From Actinomycetota bacterium (GTDB lineage Bacteria > Actinomycetota > Thermoleophilia > Gaiellales > Gaiellaceae): a stretch of 64,000 nt of DNA. The notes beneath the pieces are model-generated. The model made no database searches and was not told the DNA's origin. It was given only the letters and a program-made list of their open reading frames with translations. Position numbers and translations under genes: made by a program. The stretch is taken from the NCBI GenBank assembly GCA_003162055.1, contig PMNA01000030.1:1-64000 (forward strand), given 5' to 3'. Shown in pieces: positions 26,022 to 39,178 of the stretch (position 1 is its first letter; every line of letters begins with the position of its first letter).

Positions 26022-26576
26022 ATGAACGAGCAAGCGCTTCGCCGTTCGCAGGCCCAGATTCCGAATGCGCTGACGGTATTCAGGATTCTGCTGGTCCCGG
26101 TCTTCGTCGCGTTCGTGCTTCGTTCCGACCAGGGCTGGACGGTCACCGGCGCGATCATCTTCGGCGCCGCCGGCGTGACCGATCAGGTCGACGGTTGGCT
26201 GGCCCGCCGCTGGCACGTCGAGTCGCGTTTCGGGCAACTCGCGGATCCGCTCGCCGATCGGTTGATGATCGACGCCGCCGTGATCCTGCTCTGGCACGCG
26301 GGCAGGCTGCCGCTGATCGCGCTCCTGGTCATCCTCGGTAGAGACGTGCTTCTCCTCGGCGGTTACAGATTCGTGATGGAGCGCGGCTATGACTTCAAGG
26401 TGAATCAGATCGGCAAGGCCGGCACCTGGCTGCTCTATGCGGGCCTGGGCCTGATCCTGATCACCAAGCACGGCACCGAATGGCCGCTCTACGTCTTCTG
26501 GACCGGGCTCGCGCTGGCACTCGGCGCCGGGCTGATCTACGTCGCGCGCGCGCTCAAGGTGGTGCTGTCCAGGTGA
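26022..26576 (+). CDS. pgsA: CDP-alcohol phosphatidyltransferase (PgsA-like)
   Basis: 184 aa membrane protein. The full family motif D-x2-DG-x2-AR-x8-G-x3-D-x3-D is present in [12 protein letters not shown] followed by [11 protein letters not shown]. The most likely product is phosphatidylglycerophosphate, but other CDP-alcohol transferases share this motif. It overlaps the next gene by 4 bases (GTGA). Confidence 0.88.
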
Positions 26577-29101
26577 AGGCGATCGTCATGGCCGGGGGAG
26601 AGGGCACGCGCCTGCGCCCGCTCACCTCGAACCAGCCCAAGCCGATGGTGCCGATCGTGGGCAAGCCCTGCATGGAGCACATCCTCGAGCTCCTGCACGC
26701 GCAGGGCATCGACGACGTGGCCATCACGCTCGCCTTCATGCCGCAGGCGATCCGCACCTATTTCGGCGACGGAGAGGCGCTCGGGATGTCGATCGAATAC
26801 TCGGTCGAAGAAGAGCCGTTGGGCACGGCCGGATCGGTCAAGATGGCGGCCCGCGATATCGATGAGCCCTTCCTCGTAATCTCCGGCGACGCGCTCTGCG
26901 ACGTCGATCTGAACGCGCTGGTGAAATACCACAGCGAGCACGGAGGCGCGGCGACGATTGGCCTCAAATCGGTCGACAACCCGCTCGAGTTCGGGATCGT
27001 AGTCACCGACGACGACGGGCGGGTCGAGCGCTTCCTCGAGAAGCCCTCCTGGGGCCAGGTCTTCTCGGACACCATCAACACCGGCATCTACGTGCTCGAC
27101 CCCGAGGTTCTGCATCACGTTCCCGCCGGGCGCCCGTTCGACTTCTCGGCCGACCTCTTCCCGCTCCTGCTCGAGATGGGCAGGCCGATCTACGGTTGCG
27201 TTCTCGACGGCTACTGGCAAGACATCGGAAACCTCGATCAATACCGACAGGCGAACTTCGACGCCCTCGACGAAAAGGTTCAACTGAAGATCCCGGGCAT
27301 CCGCCTGCGCGGCGACATCTGGATCGGGGAGGGCGTCGAAATCGACGACCTGGAGTCGATCGAGGGCCCGGCCTTCATCGGCAACTACTCGCGCCTGGCC
27401 AAGGACGCCAGTCTGGGCGCCTACTCGGTGCTCGGCGCGAGCGTCACCCTGCGCGAGCGGGCCCGCGTCTCGCACTCGGTGCTCGATTCGGCAACCCACG
27501 TCGGGCGGAACACTTCGATCGAGGGCGCCGTGATCGGCCGCTCCTGCGACATTCGCTCGCACGTTCGCGTACACGAGGGCGCGGCGATCGGAGACGAGGT
27601 CGCGATCGGAGCCGAGGGCGTCATCTGGCCGGGCGTGCATATCTACCCGTACAAGGAAGTCGAGTCCGGCGCCCAGATCCACGAGAACCTCATCTGGGAG
27701 TCACGGGCGACTACACGCCTTTTCGGCCAGGACGGCGTGATCGGTCTCGTCAACGTCGATCTGACGCCGGAAATGGCTGTGCGCCTGGCCGCTGCCACGG
27801 GCACGGCGTTGAAGCAGGGCGCCCGCGTCGTCACCAGCCGTGAAGCGCCCACCGCCTGCCGCATGATCAAGCGGGCGCTGATCTCGGGGCTCAACTCGAC
27901 CGGTGTCGACGTCGCCGACCTGCGTATCTTGCCGGCCGCGATAAACAGGCACCTGCTCAAGGCCGAAAGCTACGAGCTCGGCATTCACGTCGGCTGTAGC
28001 GCAACCGACCCCGAGGTCATCCAGATTCGCTTCTTCGAACCGCCGGGCATTCAACTCGGCGAGCGGCTGCAGAAGCAGATCACCAAGCATTTCTCGCGCA
28101 TGGAACTGCGCCGCACCACCGCCGACGAAGTGGGCGGAATAAGCTACCCGGCCCGCGCGCGCGAGACTTACGCCCAAGATCTGCTCGATTCGATCGACCT
28201 AGAGCTGGTGCGGGCGCGCAATTTCAGGCTGGTGATCGACTATGGCTACTCGGCGGCGTCCTACGTGCTACCGCTGATGCTCGCGCCGCTCGGGGTCGAG
28301 GTTGTCTCGGCGCACGGATTCATAGTTGAGCGGTTAAACCAGACTCAACCGATCCCCGAGTCGCTTACGCAGGCAAGAAAGTTGGTCACGGCGGCCAACG
28401 CCGATCTCGGGGCGGCCTTTGATCGGGCCGGCGAGCGCCTGCATCTAATCGACGAGCAGGGTAACGAGATTCCAGTCGAGAAGGTGCTGCTTCTCTTCCT
28501 CAGCCTGATCGGCGCGAGTAAGCGTCGCGGCAAGGTTGCCTTCCCGGTCACGGTCACGAGTCAGGTCGAGAAACTGGCCAAGAAGTCCGGGCTGGAGGTG
28601 ATTCGTACGCGCGCCTCGCTGGTAGATCTGACAAGAGAAGCCGCCGGTGAGGGCGTCATCTTCGCGGGTGCAGTGGGCGGGGGATATGTCTTTCCCGATT
28701 TTCTTCCCGCTTATGACGCCGTGGCGAGCCTCTGCAAGCTGCTCGAGCTGTTGGCAGCTGTGCCGCAGCCCATCTCGGAGCTCGTCTCGAAGCTCCCGCC
28801 TAGCACGCTGGTGCACCGCCGTCTTCACTGCCCCTGGGGGAAGAAGGGCCTCGTCATGCGTCTCCTCGTCGAGCGACTGAAGGATCGGAAGCTCGATCTC
28901 ACCGATGGGGTCAAGGTCAGCGACGAGCGCGGCTGGGCGGAGGTCATAACCGACTCCGACGAGCCTGTGGTTCATATTTACGCCGAAGGTGTCAGCCCCG
29001 AGCTCTCGAATGAGCTGGAGAGCGAGATGCGCATCCTCGTCGAAGAAATCCTCGGTTCCGACAACGAAACGAGCGAGGAATCGTCCGCCGGCGCCGATTG
29101 A
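26573..29101 (+). CDS. Sugar-1-phosphate nucleotidyltransferase fused to a degenerate phosphomutase
   Basis: 842 aa from GTG 26573. Residues 1-235 are a nucleotidyltransferase ([19 protein letters not shown] near 154-158, YWQDIGN near 214). Residues 240-375 are left-handed beta-helix repeats. Residues 385-825 align with the phosphohexomutase fold, but its four catalytic loops are altered: TASHNP position reads GCSATDP (474-480), the metal loop DGDGDR reads DRAGER (617-622), the sugar loop GExSGH reads GAVGGG (699-704), and the RPSGTEP loop reads TDSDEP (793-798). The first half probably makes GDP-mannose or a similar nucleotide sugar. The second half is probably non-catalytic. Confidence 0.85.
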
Positions 29102-29160: not shown

Positions 29161-29415
29161 GTGGAACCACTTGCTGACCTCACCACCCTCTCCGATGACG
29201 AGCTTCGCAGCCTGATCGCGGACTTGAAAAAGGAAGAAGACGAGCTCTCTTATAAGCGCCGTCTCCTGCACGGGAAGATCGACATCCTGCGCGCCGAGCT
29301 AGTCGCCCGGCTGCAGAAATCGGTTGAAGGGGGCGAGGGCACTATCAGTACCGATATCGACAAACTGACCGAAATTCTCGCCGCCAAAGCACCACCACCC
29401 GACGAATTCGAGTGA
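29161..29415 (+). CDS. RsiG-like c-di-GMP-responsive anti-sigma protein
   Basis: 84 aa, almost wholly helical. It carries E26-x3-S30-x2-R33-x3-H37-x3-D41, which matches the RsiG c-di-GMP motif E(X)3S(X)2R(X)3Q(X)3D except for His in place of Gln. In Streptomyces and Rubrobacter, RsiG binds c-di-GMP and holds a WhiG-type sigma. GTG start with AAAGG nine bases upstream. No WhiG gene is in the window; the partner would lie elsewhere. It overlaps the FHA gene by 4 bases. Confidence 0.7.
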   Translation: MEPLADLTTLSDDELRSLIADLKKEEDELSYKRRLLHGKIDILRAELVARLQKSVEGGEGTISTDIDKLTEILAAKAPPPDEFE

Positions 29416-29873
29416 GCTATTTTTACTGTCCCCAGTGCGGTTTTCAGAATCCGGAAGCCGCAAACTTCTGCGCTAAATGCGGCGCGCTGCTCGTGCACGA
29501 AGAAGCCGGCGCCGAGACGACTCTGGCCCTGACCCCGGATGAGGTCGAAGAGGCGCGGCTTGATCTCGGTGATCTGGGAGTCAAGGGCCCGGCGCTGGTC
29601 GTTCGCACGGGCGGAGGGCTGGCAGGAGAGGTCTTCTCCGCGGTCGGAGAGAACACGACGATCGGGCGCTCGCCCGATTGCGACGTCTTTCTCGACGATG
29701 TGACCGTGTCGCGTCGGCACGCGACCCTCGTACATGACGGATCGCGGTTTCAACTTCGGGACGAAGGAAGCCTCAACGGCACCTTCCTCAACCGCCACAG
29801 GATCGAATCTGCCGAGCTCGCCGACGGCGACGAGGTGCAGATCGGTAAATACCGGCTCACCTTCTTGACCTGA
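29412..29873 (+). CDS. Zinc-ribbon plus FHA domain protein
   Basis: 153 aa. An N-terminal zinc ribbon (CPQCGFQNPEAANFCAKCGA, residues 6-25) is joined by an acidic linker to an FHA domain with TIGRSPDCDVFLDD, VSRRHATL and SLNGTFLN. FHA domains bind phosphothreonine; GarA-like proteins of this type are targets of Ser/Thr kinases. The GTGA overlap with the RsiG-like gene suggests joint expression. Confidence 0.88.
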   Translation: MSYFYCPQCGFQNPEAANFCAKCGALLVHEEAGAETTLALTPDEVEEARLDLGDLGVKGPALVVRTGGGLAGEVFSAVGENTTIGRSPDCDVFLDDVTVSRRHATLVHDGSRFQLRDEGSLNGTFLNRHRIESAELADGDEVQIGKYRLTFLT

Positions 29874-29979
29874 TGCCCGGGCCATCGCGACCCTCGGAGA
29901 TGCTCGAGATCGCAGGCCGCGAGAAACCTCTAGCGAGCGGCTTGTGCGCCGAGCGCCGCGCGGGAAGTGGGGAGGACGA

Positions 29980-30507
29980 GTGACCGTCTCGATCGACGAC
30001 TTGCGCGCGAAGATTCTCGAGGTATCGGACTTTCCCGAGGCTGGACTCAGCTTTCAGGATCTGTCGCTCCTGCTCGCCGATCCCGATTGCTTCCGCACGG
30101 CGGTTGACCTGTTGGCTGAATGGGCCCGACCGAGAAAACCCGAAATAGTGCTGGGCGCGGAGGCGGGTGGCTTCATTCTCGGTGGAGCGCTCGCTTACGT
30201 ACTGGGTGCCGGTTTTGTGGCCACACGGCGCGCGGATCGTCCTTCGGGCGAGGGCGTTCGGGCCGACTGGGAGATGGAGGGGAGTATCGGCTCGCTCGAG
30301 CTGCCGGAGGGATTGATCCCCAAGGGCTCGCGCGTGCTCGTTCACGATGATCTGCTCGCCACCGGTGCTACGGCGCAGGCTAAGGTCGAACTGGTCGAGC
30401 AACTTGGTGGAGAAGTTGTCGGAGTCGTCTTCATGGTCGAGCTTCAGTTGCTCAACGGGCGCCGGCGCCTCGCCGATCACGATGTGCACTCGCTGATCAA
30501 GCTCTAG
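29980..30507 (+). CDS. Adenine phosphoribosyltransferase-like protein
   Basis: 175 aa from GTG 29980 with GGAGG four bases upstream. Type I phosphoribosyltransferase: GAEAGGFILGGALAYVLG, FVATRRADRPSG and the PRPP loop VLVHDDLLATGATA, where the second residue before DD is His where most family members have Val/Asp. The APRT-like layout suggests adenine salvage, but other purine bases cannot be excluded. Confidence 0.78.
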   Translation: MTVSIDDLRAKILEVSDFPEAGLSFQDLSLLLADPDCFRTAVDLLAEWARPRKPEIVLGAEAGGFILGGALAYVLGAGFVATRRADRPSGEGVRADWEMEGSIGSLELPEGLIPKGSRVLVHDDLLATGATAQAKVELVEQLGGEVVGVVFMVELQLLNGRRRLADHDVHSLIKL

Positions 30508-34351: not shown

Positions 34352-35365
34352 CTACGTGCGCAGGTAGTGCTCAAGGTCGGGGGCGACCATACGCAGCTCG
34401 CGCAGCGCGCGGGACTCGAGCTGGCGCACGCGCTCGCGCGTGATGCCGAGCTCGGAGCCGACCTCCTCGAGCGTTCGCGACTGCTGCCCGTCGAGGCCGA
34501 AGCGCGCGCTCAGAACGTGACGCATGCGCGGGTTCAGCTTGTCCAGCGCAACCCCCAGCTCGACCGAGCGAAGACGGTCGGAGGTGGCGCCGTCCGGCGA
34601 CTCGGTCTTCGTGTCCTCGATCAGGTCGCCGTAGAGGCTCTCGCCGTCCCCGACCGGGGTCTCCAAGCTGACCGGATCCTCGACCAGATCGAGCAGCTGA
34701 ATCACGCGCTCGACCGGGAAGCCGCTCTCTTTCGCCAGCTCCTCGATGGTCGGATCACGGTTGACCTTCTGCGCCAGCACGCGGCGGGTGCGCATCAGCC
34801 GGCGCACCTGCTCGGCCACGTGGACGGGGAGGCGAATGGTGCGGCCCTGATCGGCCAGCGCTCTCGTGACCGCCTGGCGAATCCACCAGGTGGCGTAGGT
34901 CGAGAGCTTGTAGCCCATGCGGTAGTCGAATTTCTCGACCGCGCGAATCAACCCGAGGTTACCCTCCTGAATCAGGTCGAGCAGCGGTACGCCCGCCTTC
35001 GTGTAGTGGCGGGTAATCGACATCACGAGGCGCAGGTTCGACTCGATCAGCTTGCTCTTGGCGTCCTCGTCGCCCTCGTCCTTGCGCCTGGCCAGCTCGC
35101 GCTCTTCGGCGGGCGTGAGGAGTGGCCCGTCACCTATCTGCCGAACGTAGAGCTTGAGCGGGTCGGAAGTCTGAGTGGCGTAGGCGGCGATCTCTTCGTC
35201 GTCGGCCTCTTCCTCTTGCACCAGCTCGGTTAGCTCGGCTTCTTCTTCGACTGCCGCTACGAGTTTCGGATCCTCTTGCTCGACATCGTGGACTAACTCC
35301 AGCTTTGGCGGAGCGGGCCTCGATGCCGGGAGTGGATGCGGGAGGATCGGCTGTGCCACGCTCAC
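34352..35365 (-). CDS. Sigma-70 family RNA polymerase sigma factor (RpoD-type)
   Basis: 337 aa from GTG 35365. An acidic N-terminal stretch (residues about 30-62) precedes region 1.2 (DPLKLYVRQIGDGPLLT), region 2 ([53 protein letters not shown]), region 3 and region 4.2 (RTLEEVGSELGITRERVRQLE). Complete group 1/2 set. Its 3' end faces that of the other sigma gene. Confidence 0.9.
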   Translation of the reverse strand: MSVAQPILPHPLPASRPAPPKLELVHDVEQEDPKLVAAVEEEAELTELVQEEEADDEEIAAYATQTSDPLKLYVRQIGDGPLLTPAEERELARRKDEGDEDAKSKLIESNLRLVMSITRHYTKAGVPLLDLIQEGNLGLIRAVEKFDYRMGYKLSTYATWWIRQAVTRALADQGRTIRLPVHVAEQVRRLMRTRRVLAQKVNRDPTIEELAKESGFPVERVIQLLDLVEDPVSLETPVGDGESLYGDLIEDTKTESPDGATSDRLRSVELGVALDKLNPRMRHVLSARFGLDGQQSRTLEEVGSELGITRERVRQLESRALRELRMVAPDLEHYLRT

Positions 35366-36316: not shown

Positions 36317-39061
36317 TCAGTGCGCGAGCTCGAGCGCGCTGTCGGGCGACTCGCCTTCGGAGGTGCCGCCCCCTCCCCCACCGGCCTCGGCCGGCAGGAT
36401 GTTCTCGAGCGCCGAGACGCAGCGCGGGCAGAACTGCTCGCCTGCGTTCTCGCGCAGCTCGACGAGCGCCTGCTTGACCTGGCGGGCCGAGCGATAGGTG
36501 CGCGTGGTGAGCATCGAATCGAGCGCATCGGCTACATGGATGATGCGGGCGCCGAGCGGGATCTCCTCCCCGGCGAGGCCGTCCGGATAGCCGGAGCCGT
36601 CGAAGTGCTCGTGGTGGTGGCGAATGGCCGGAACCGCGTCGGCTAGGAAGCCGAGCCGCTCGATGATGCGGGCGCCTTCGTCGGCATGCCTTCGCATCAG
36701 CTCCCATTCATAGTCGTTCAGCTCGGAGGGCTTGAGCAGCACCGAGTCGGGCACGGCCAGCTTGCCGATGTCGTGGAAAAGGGCGGCCTGGCCGAGAATA
36801 TTCAGCTCTGCCGGAGAGAATCCGATCTCGCGCCCGATCGCGAGCGCGAGTTGCTGGACGCGGCGCGAGTGGCCAGCGGTGTAGGAGTCGCGCGCATCGA
36901 CGGTGGCCGACAGGCTCTCCATGGCGGCTGTCGAGCGCTCGCGTAGGAGTCGGTTCGCCTGTTCGAGCGAGAGGTTCTGCTTCTGGATCGTCTCGGCGGC
37001 CTGACGCAGCTTGTGCGCGCTCTTCTGGGCATGCCCGAGGTAGTCCTCTTGCGTCTTGCGCATGATCAAAAGCGGCAGGGCGAAGACGAGCAGCGCCTCG
37101 CTGCCGATCGCGTGGTAGGCGACCGCGATCAGAGCTCCCACGAGGCCGTAGACGAGGTAGTAGGGCACCAACCAGCTGAAGCGCTCGCGCCAGGCTGCCA
37201 GCCAGTTCTCATTGCCCTCGAGCGCCAAGGCTCCGGCGAGCAGTCCGGTGTTGATGAGGAAGTAGACGCCGCCGGCTGCGATCCCGGCCAGGTCGAAGAC
37301 AATTTGACGAGGGCTCAGCTCGCGGCCCAGTGCGAAGACGCCGCCCGCCGCCAGCCCGGCGAGACTCAGCCCGCCGATGTTGAAGAGCACCTGGTGCAAC
37401 GCCGATCGGCGCGCGCTCCACTCCACCACGCTGGTCGTAACCGCGAGCAGAAGTGCGACGCGCACGTCGAACAGAGCGACGCCGGCGATCGTGCCGACCG
37501 CGCTGACCGAGATCGAGCCGTCGTCGACCTGGATGGCGAGCGCCTGCCCCACTCCGACCAACGCGGTGACGGCGACGATTCCACCCCAGTCGATCTGACC
37601 GTGCGAGAACACCACGGCTGCCACGCCCGCCGCGATGCCGGTTGTGCTGATGAGCGCAACGATCGTGGCAAGGCGGAAGGAGAGCGAGAGGAAGTACGGG
37701 TTCTGGGCCGCACGGGGCCGCGGATTGCCCTCGGCCGAAAGAGCGGTGCGTTCGTCGTGCTCGGCGATCTGAGCGGCGACCTCGAGGTGGCCGGAGAGGG
37801 AGGGCGCGAGCACGGTCTCCTCGGCGCTCGCGGCCTGGACGCGGTTGCGTCCCTGTAGCTTGGCTCGGTAAACGGCCAGGTCGGACTGATGGATGAGCGC
37901 ATTCTGGTCGGCGCCGTCGCTGGGGAAGGAAGCGACTCCGATCGAGACGGTTGCGTGAATCGGCTCGCTCGAGGTCGAGACGTCGACGGAGCGCTCGGCG
38001 ACGGCTCGGCGGATCCTCTCCGCTATCTCGAGCGCTTTCTCGACGGGCGTTTCCGGAAGTAAGATGCTGAACTCCTCGCCGCCGAAACGAGCTGCCACGT
38101 CGTAGTGGCGCAGCTGCGAGCGGAAGACATCGGCGACGGCGCAGAGGATGGCGTCGCCGGCCAGGTGGCCGTAGGTGTTGTTGATCTCGCGCAGGAGGTC
38201 GAGGTCGATCATCAGCACCGAAAGGGGGTGGCCGTAGCGGATCGAGCGCGCCAGCTCGTCGCCGAAGACACGGCCGAAGTGGCGCGCGTTGTAGAGGCCG
38301 GTCTTGGGGTCGACGCGGGCCTCTTCCTGCAGGCGAGGCACCGTGAGCGAGCGCTGCGCAAGCACGAGCGGAGCGATTGCGAACAACGCCAGCCAGGAGT
38401 CGTAGGCCCAGATCAGGGCAATCACGACGCCGAGTACCGCAAGGGCCAGGTTGTAGCCGAGCGAGGAGAGCGAACCCGTCGATCGCCAGACGCTAAGCGA
38501 GCCACCCAGCTCGTGCTTGATGATCGCGATCAGGCAGTGATCGACGAGCACGAAGGTTGCCGCTGCCAGCAGGCCGGCCAGCGCGATCTCACCGGTTCGG
38601 CTTGCGGCGAGCCCATGACCGTTGAGAATGAGATCGGCAGCGCCCCAGGCGCCGAACGCGGCCAAAGTGGCGCAGGCGATGGAGGCTGCCTGAGCCGTCC
38701 AGGCGTAGCGCTGCTTGAGCCATTCCGGTATGTGCTGCACGATCGGTACCAGCACGACCAGCTCGGGCGGCAGCACGAGCGCGGCCGCCACGATGAAGAC
38801 GGCCAGCGACTCGTGGGCGTTACGAGAGGACGAACCGCGGGTTACGAGTAGCTGCGTGATCGCGGCCGCAGCGGCGAAACAGGCGAAAGCCCTCCAGCCG
38901 CTGGTACCCGAGCGAAGGTGAACGAACAGGGCGACATCCACGCCGATCGCGCCGGCGATCAGCAGCGAGGTGAAGATTCGCGTGCCCAGATTGCGGCGGC
39001 GAAGCGCCGGTTTCGGCCTGGGGCCGTCGTTCTGGCTGGTCTCGTTCGCGGTGATGCTCAC
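36317..39061 (-). CDS. Dual-membrane-block GGDEF/HD-GYP c-di-GMP enzyme
   Basis: 914 aa from GTG 39061 (a longer GTG at 39127 adds 22 residues). Order: about seven helices (28-238), GGDEF domain with intact GGEEF active site (327-331) and intact inhibitory RxxD (RHYD, 318-321); a second hydrophobic block of about seven helices (460-668); a coiled coil; HD-GYP with HDIGKL (763-768), HHHEHFDGSGYP (815-826). It could both make and destroy c-di-GMP at the membrane. The two halves look like two membrane sensors joined head to tail. The ligand sensed is unknown. Confidence 0.88.
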   Translation of the reverse strand: MSITANETSQNDGPRPKPALRRRNLGTRIFTSLLIAGAIGVDVALFVHLRSGTSGWRAFACFAAAAAITQLLVTRGSSSRNAHESLAVFIVAAALVLPPELVVLVPIVQHIPEWLKQRYAWTAQAASIACATLAAFGAWGAADLILNGHGLAASRTGEIALAGLLAAATFVLVDHCLIAIIKHELGGSLSVWRSTGSLSSLGYNLALAVLGVVIALIWAYDSWLALFAIAPLVLAQRSLTVPRLQEEARVDPKTGLYNARHFGRVFGDELARSIRYGHPLSVLMIDLDLLREINNTYGHLAGDAILCAVADVFRSQLRHYDVAARFGGEEFSILLPETPVEKALEIAERIRRAVAERSVDVSTSSEPIHATVSIGVASFPSDGADQNALIHQSDLAVYRAKLQGRNRVQAASAEETVLAPSLSGHLEVAAQIAEHDERTALSAEGNPRPRAAQNPYFLSLSFRLATIVALISTTGIAAGVAAVVFSHGQIDWGGIVAVTALVGVGQALAIQVDDGSISVSAVGTIAGVALFDVRVALLLAVTTSVVEWSARRSALHQVLFNIGGLSLAGLAAGGVFALGRELSPRQIVFDLAGIAAGGVYFLINTGLLAGALALEGNENWLAAWRERFSWLVPYYLVYGLVGALIAVAYHAIGSEALLVFALPLLIMRKTQEDYLGHAQKSAHKLRQAAETIQKQNLSLEQANRLLRERSTAAMESLSATVDARDSYTAGHSRRVQQLALAIGREIGFSPAELNILGQAALFHDIGKLAVPDSVLLKPSELNDYEWELMRRHADEGARIIERLGFLADAVPAIRHHHEHFDGSGYPDGLAGEEIPLGARIIHVADALDSMLTTRTYRSARQVKQALVELRENAGEQFCPRCVSALENILPAEAGGGGGGTSEGESPDSALELAH

Positions 39062-39178
39062 GTCAACGGAGCCCTCGGGCGGGCATGCTCGCCGGCCTGA
39101 CGAAGAGCGCGTGGAATATAGGGGCACACGAACAAGACACGGCTGTTACTAACTCTCCACGCTATCGACGGTAGGCGA

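What the first reader, a model, noticed from the sequence alone, without database searches (positions are those of the whole stretch)
29161..29873. RsiG-like c-di-GMP switch overlapping an FHA gene
The 84-aa protein matches the RsiG c-di-GMP motif at four of five positions, with His for Gln. It is translationally coupled to a zinc-ribbon FHA protein, which suggests a link between c-di-GMP and Ser/Thr phosphorylation signals. This pairing is not part of the Streptomyces WhiG/RsiG locus as I know it.
Basis: partly seen in the sequence, partly recalled or inferred. Interest (0 to 1): 0.6.

Follow-up and report, generated by a model that had tools for sequence, protein, structure and literature searches.

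The report
RsiG switch gene beside garA
The gene encodes a genuine small c-di-GMP-armed brake (RsiG) on a WhiG-type sigma factor, and in every deep-branching actinobacterium sampled it sits directly in front of the gene for the kinase-controlled metabolic regulator GarA, an old and apparently undescribed pairing whose functional meaning is untested.

Summary
Confirmed, with a changed interpretation. The 84-aa ORF (29161-29415, +) is a true single-motif RsiG: Pfam RsiG 78.5 bits (cut-off 27), similar to the solved Rubrobacter and Streptomyces RsiGs. His for Gln is no defect: 134 of 162 single motifs carry His, and the published Conexibacter His-RsiG binds c-di-GMP. The genome has a WhiG that keeps the published c-di-GMP contacts, a FliA-type paralogue that lacks them, 13 GGDEF matches, and one exact WhiG-consensus promoter, immediately upstream of a REC-GGDEF gene. 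The overlapping gene (29412-29873) is the genome's best GarA/OdhI match, with an added zinc ribbon. The pairing is general: 168 of 168 single-motif rsiG loci with enough flank (about 24 family-level groups) have this garA-like gene downstream, usually abutting, then ftsR. None of 30 twin-motif loci outside the window's order does. Genomes without rsiG mostly lack whiG too but keep garA-ftsR. So RsiG's evolutionary partner is WhiG, and rsiG sits in the garA operon. Direct c-di-GMP/phospho-Thr crosstalk is possible but unproven. The RsiG is a new member of a known kind; the linkage was not found in the held literature.

The parts
29161..29415 (+). rsiG, single-motif RsiG anti-sigma homologue, 84 aa, GTG start
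   Evidence: Pfam PF22802 78.5 bits, cut-off 27; phmmer to 6pfj, 7lq2-4; only RsiG in the genome
29236..29283 (+). c-di-GMP motif E26-S30-R33-H37-D41
   Evidence: E, S, R, D invariant in 34 homologues, position 37 H or Q; H in 134 and Q in 28 of 162 single motifs; roles of the residues from PMC8325347
29412..29415 (+). GTGA overlap of the rsiG stop and the start of the FHA gene
   Evidence: read directly; 82 of 171 homologous pairs abut or overlap by an approximate measure
29412..29873 (+). GarA/OdhI-like FHA protein, 153 aa
   Evidence: best OdhI match of the genome, 116.6 bits, next 57.2; GarA structures E=1.6e-27 over residues 58-153; under the curated OdhI cut-off of 200 bits
29424..29486 (+). 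N-terminal zinc ribbon (CPQC...CAKC) of the FHA protein
   Evidence: Pfam Zn_Ribbon_1 31.2 bits, cut-off 25; present in 171 of 173 rsiG-linked relatives
29514..29525 (+). ETTL, at the place of the ETTS phosphorylation motif of GarA
   Evidence: sequence; Thr present in the 30 residues after the ribbon in 171 of 171 relatives with a ribbon; ETTS role from PMC12321487; phosphorylation here is inferred
29655..29846 (+). FHA domain with GRS, SRRH and NGT signatures
   Evidence: Pfam FHA 79.7 bits; signatures kept in 169 of 173 relatives
26567..29101 (+). upstream neighbour: nucleotidyltransferase plus phosphomannomutase fusion (start approximate)
   Evidence: Pfam; the upstream neighbour varies between lineages: PMM, pgsA or gcvH
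29980..30507 (+). downstream neighbour: adenine phosphoribosyltransferase; ftsR, which normally lies between, is absent here
   Evidence: NCBIfam; ftsR missing in this genus

Best explanation
The 84-aa protein is a single-motif RsiG. It most likely forms an antiparallel homodimer that, when c-di-GMP is high, holds two c-di-GMP molecules and sequesters the genome's WhiG (contig C8), and releases it when c-di-GMP falls; WhiG then transcribes its regulon, which by promoter match includes a REC-GGDEF gene. The gene is the first member of a conserved gene order rsiG-garA-ftsR (ftsR is lost in this genus). The overlapping FHA gene is the GarA/OdhI counterpart of these lineages, by analogy a Ser/Thr-kinase-controlled inhibitor of 2-oxoglutarate metabolism, here with an extra zinc ribbon. 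The best-supported relation between the two is co-transcription and translational coupling, so that a lifestyle switch and a metabolic switch are made together; no direct contact needs to be assumed. Shown here by computation: family membership, motif, WhiG presence and contact residues, co-occurrence, synteny. Inferred: c-di-GMP and WhiG binding in this species, GarA function, the operon. Not shown: any signal crosstalk.
For: RsiG family match and motif. The His-type RsiG of Conexibacter woesei binds c-di-GMP, Kd 25 uM alone and 1.7 uM with WhiG (PMC8325347). A WhiG in the genome keeps the K, G, R contacts. RsiG and WhiG co-occur, 45/46 against 4/34 genomes. The only exact WhiG-consensus promoter of the genome lies about 10 bp upstream of a REC-GGDEF ORF; 0.11 matches expected by base composition. 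168/168 single-motif loci with enough flank have the GarA-like gene downstream; median gap about 2 nt. The FHA gene is the best OdhI match and sits at the garA-ftsR place.
Against: No binding data for this species. The FHA protein stays under the curated OdhI cut-off (116 of 200 bits). The C8 WhiG has Glu where the Rubrobacter WhiG residue K243 is inferred to align (that alignment is my inference). Adjacency alone does not prove an operon. A fold search with the RsiG model found no significant match, as can be expected of a lone long helix.
Confidence: 0.82

Rival explanations
1. RsiG and GarA form a true signalling module: the FHA domain binds a phosphorylated RsiG or WhiG, or RsiG with c-di-GMP alters GarA, so that c-di-GMP and Ser/Thr phosphorylation are integrated directly.
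For: Invariant adjacency across about 24 family-level groups with frequent overlap; FHA signatures and a candidate phosphorylation motif are kept; Ser/Thr kinases are in the genome.
Against: GarA persists in 21 of 22 genomes without RsiG. RsiG co-occurs with WhiG. Twin-motif RsiG works in Streptomyces without garA next door. No positive evidence of contact.
Confidence: 0.17
2. The adjacency is only inherited gene order: rsiG happens to sit in an old housekeeping gene string and the order carries no regulatory meaning.
For: garA-ftsR are kept together with or without rsiG, so rsiG may simply be carried along; a few lineages have another gene in between.
Against: Upstream neighbours change freely (PMM, pgsA, gcvH) while rsiG-garA does not break in 168 loci; abutting or overlapping genes in about half of the pairs suggest translational coupling.
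Confidence: 0.3
3. This RsiG controls the second FliA-type sigma (contig C5) or no sigma at all.
For: A second FliA/WhiG-class sigma over cut-off exists (205 bits), next to a divergent REC-HD-domain gene.
Against: It lacks the three sigma-2 contact residues for c-di-GMP (T, S, K in place of K, G, R) and scores lower against solved WhiG than the C8 sigma (158 against 292 bits).
Confidence: 0.05

Closest known systems
Single-motif RsiG of Rubrobacter radiotolerans and Conexibacter woesei (PMC8325347; PDB 7lq2-7lq4)
   Same: Size, single motif, His variant, helix plus glycine-containing linker plus short C-terminal helix, WhiG in the genome, a WhiG-type promoter before a c-di-GMP enzyme gene.
   Different: Nothing essential in the protein. 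The garA neighbour is not mentioned in that paper.
Twin-motif RsiG of Streptomyces venezuelae (PDB 6pfj, 6pfv)
   Same: Same motif, homologous helix, same sigma class.
   Different: One motif instead of two, so a homodimer is needed; Streptomyces loci have no garA next door.
GarA / OdhI (Mycobacterium, Corynebacterium)
   Same: FHA domain (E=1.6e-27 to GarA), Thr motif before it, garA-ftsR gene order in relatives.
   Different: N-terminal zinc ribbon; score under the OdhI equivalog cut-off; rsiG directly upstream; ftsR lost in this genus.
odhI/garA-ftsR locus of Actinobacteria (PMC6683498)
   Same: Same garA-ftsR core; FtsR over the NCBIfam cut-off in four lineages sampled.
   Different: That paper says the region upstream of odhI varies; in the deep-branching lineages sampled here it is rsiG.

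Membership tests
RsiG | Match to the family model PF22802 | tested here: met
   78.5 bits, cut-off 27
RsiG | E(X)3S(X)2R(X)3[Q/H](X)3D motif | tested here: met
   E26, S30, R33, H37, D41
RsiG | Glycine-containing linker and C-terminal helix after the motif helix (single-motif type) | tested here: met
   GGEG at 57-60, predicted helices 12-56 and 62-74
RsiG | WhiG-type sigma in the same genome with the c-di-GMP contact residues | tested here: met
   C8 sigma 283 bits, K/G/R kept
RsiG | Fold match to solved RsiG chains | tested here: inconclusive
   No significant Foldseek match; the model is mostly one long helix
RsiG | Binds c-di-GMP and WhiG as a homodimer | not testable with these tools
   Needs purified proteins
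GarA/OdhI | FHA domain closest to GarA/OdhI within the genome | tested here: met
   116.6 bits against 57.2 for the next place; E=1.6e-27 to GarA
GarA/OdhI | Curated OdhI cut-off (NF041660, 200 bits) | tested here: not met
   116 bits. The best Streptomyces matches, 187-189 bits, also stay under it. I therefore call it GarA-like, not a member by that model
GarA/OdhI | Gene order garA-ftsR | tested here: met
   Met in relatives; ftsR itself is lost in the window's genus
GarA/OdhI | ETTS phosphorylation motif before the FHA domain | tested here: inconclusive
   ETTL here; Thr conserved after the ribbon
GarA/OdhI | Inhibits 2-oxoglutarate dehydrogenase | not tested
   ODH genes of this genome were not searched; activity needs an assay

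The most novel reading that the evidence does not exclude
rsiG-garA is an ancestral two-input control module of Actinobacteria in which c-di-GMP (through RsiG-WhiG) and Ser/Thr kinases (through zinc-ribbon GarA) are integrated by direct contact or enforced stoichiometry, and which was dismantled when RsiG became twin-motif and left the locus.
Probability: 0.17. Interest if true: 0.78.

Novelty: new member of a known kind. Interest (0 to 1): 0.5.

Why it matters
The protein itself is an expected RsiG. What adds knowledge is that the deep-branching form of this c-di-GMP switch sits, in every sampled case with enough flank, next to the gene for a GarA-like central-metabolism regulator. That gives a concrete, testable link between lifestyle signalling and nutrient signalling, hints at where the anti-sigma gene lived before it is found elsewhere in Streptomyces, and extends single-motif RsiG to many more lineages than the five species described in 2021.

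Tried and rejected
Chance motif: rejected. His as a broken site: rejected. Pairing as a peculiarity of this genome: rejected. FHA as an unplaced FHA protein: rejected in favour of GarA-like. The second FliA-type sigma as partner: disfavoured. Foldseek on the predicted monomer led nowhere. An AU test could not exclude a single origin of all twin-motif RsiGs (p 0.17-0.20), so independent duplication in the window's order stays a suggestion. Literature searches for RsiG with FHA or GarA found nothing relevant; most subscription journals and preprints are not held.

Full report
What is there. The window carries rsiG (29161-29415, +) and a zinc-ribbon FHA gene (29412-29873, +) overlapping by GTGA. 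The first gene matches Pfam RsiG at 78.5 bits with a cut-off of 27 and the solved RsiG proteins of Streptomyces (6pfj, E=7.5e-11) and Rubrobacter (7lq2, E=1.8e-9). Its c-di-GMP motif is E26, S30, R33, H37, D41; E, S, R and D are invariant in 34 diverse homologues. His in place of Gln is the rule: 134 of 162 complete single motifs have His, 28 have Gln. The 2021 study that described single-motif RsiGs (PMC8325347) writes the motif with Q/H and measured c-di-GMP binding by the His-type Conexibacter protein (Kd 25 uM alone, 1.7 uM with WhiG). The predicted model has the expected long motif helix (12-56), a linker with glycines and a short C-terminal helix (62-74); a fold search with this lone helix was uninformative.

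Partner sigma. The window's genome (2.16 Mb, 93.6% complete) has one RsiG and two FliA/WhiG-class sigmas over cut-off. The one on contig C8 keeps the K, G and R residues that touch c-di-GMP in solved WhiG complexes; the one on C5 has T, S and K (contacts). The C8 gene lies 1.8 kb downstream of a GGDEF plus HD-domain gene. Over 80 chosen genomes, 45 of 46 with RsiG have a strong WhiG match, against 4 of 34 without RsiG (Fisher p=1.5e-16, not corrected for shared ancestry). The genome has 13 GGDEF matches. A scan for the exact WhiG/flagellar consensus (TAAA, 14-16 bases, GCCGATAA) gave one hit in the genome, with 0.11 expected by base composition, and it lies immediately upstream of a REC-GGDEF ORF. 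In Rubrobacter, five of twelve mapped WhiG-type promoters likewise precede c-di-GMP enzyme genes.

The FHA neighbour. It is the best OdhI/GarA match of the genome (116.6 bits; next 57.2), and its last 96 residues align to GarA structures at E=1.6e-27. It stays under the curated OdhI cut-off of 200 bits, as do the best Streptomyces matches (187-189 bits; f30 taken as Streptomyces from its RsiG and genome size). A zinc ribbon precedes the FHA domain in 171 of 173 rsiG-linked relatives, the FHA signatures are kept in 169 of 173, and the 30 residues after the ribbon always contain Thr (ETTL here), recalling the ETTS phosphorylation motif of GarA (PMC12321487). Three Ser/Thr kinase matches are in the genome.

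How general is the pairing. RsiG loci were collected by the RsiG model or sequence alone, without regard to neighbours. Of 170 single-motif loci, 168 have a GarA-like FHA gene downstream on the same strand within 1.6 kb; the other two are cut by contig ends. They span about 24 family codes, 11 in the window's class and about 13 outside it, including a family whose RsiG is nearly identical to the Rubrobacter protein (f23; compare). A named example is Conexibacter sp. S30A1 (L074). By an approximate measure the gap is about 2 nt at the median and 82 of 171 pairs abut or overlap; in 26 loci a small unknown gene lies between. A MerR gene follows garA in 78 of 85 loci of the first set; it is FtsR by NCBIfam, over cut-off, in all four lineages tested. 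None of 30 twin-motif loci outside the window's order with enough flank, nor of 19 with shorter flank, shows the FHA gene. Five twin-motif RsiGs in the window's own order do; their two halves group with single motifs of that order, which suggests a second, independent internal duplication, but a test did not reject a common origin.

What happens when rsiG is absent. In 21 of 22 genomes without RsiG a strong GarA-like match remains, mostly in the arrangement pgsA or PMM, then garA, then ftsR, with rsiG cleanly missing. One such genome keeps what looks like a decayed rsiG at that place, and it has no WhiG. In genomes with twin-motif RsiG and in those with the strongest OdhI matches, garA mostly sits in gcvH-garA-ftsR. 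So rsiG comes and goes with whiG, while garA-ftsR stays.

Interpretation. The gene is an RsiG and most likely works as one. The pair is an old gene order, not a local novelty. The published description of the garA-ftsR locus says its upstream region varies (PMC6683498), and the RsiG paper does not mention FHA at all; no paper in the held library was found that joins the two. Co-expression is the best-supported relation. [quoted passage not shown] In Streptomyces a phosphodiesterase with an inactive GGDEF domain displaces RsiG from WhiG (PMC13232838); the REC-GGDEF behind the WhiG-type promoter here also has a degenerate motif (SGDKF), so a similar antagonist is a hypothesis worth testing.

Limits.

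Noticed in passing
L160:3052-3318 (-), L155:4720-5016 (+) and 24 further loci: A conserved protein of about 90 aa without a Pfam match lies between rsiG and garA in deep-branching lineages.
   Followed up: partly
L096, L097, L104, L114, L117: Twin-motif RsiGs inside the window's own order, still next to garA; the halves group with single motifs of that order, suggesting an independent internal duplication, not proven.
   Followed up: partly
L324:8845-9795 (-), promoter L324:9831-9805 (-): The only exact WhiG-consensus promoter of the genome precedes a REC-GGDEF protein with a degenerate SGDKF motif, possibly a binding rather than a catalytic domain.
   Followed up: partly
window 36320-39145 (-): A GGEEF plus HD-GYP-like protein about 7 kb from rsiG, so a c-di-GMP turnover gene is in the same window.
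   Followed up: no
L234:8218-9174 (+) and L234:6918-8183 (-): A second FliA-type sigma without the c-di-GMP contact residues, divergent from a REC-HD-domain gene.
   Followed up: partly
L308 (genome G168): What looks like a decayed rsiG between pgsA and garA in a genome without WhiG.
   Followed up: partly
window 35394-35367 (-): A one-mismatch WhiG-type promoter directly before a sigA-like sigma gene at 34352-35365 (-); may be chance.
   Followed up: no
window 29873-29980: ftsR, which follows garA almost everywhere else, is missing here and in close relatives, and no good match was found elsewhere in the genome.
   Followed up: partly
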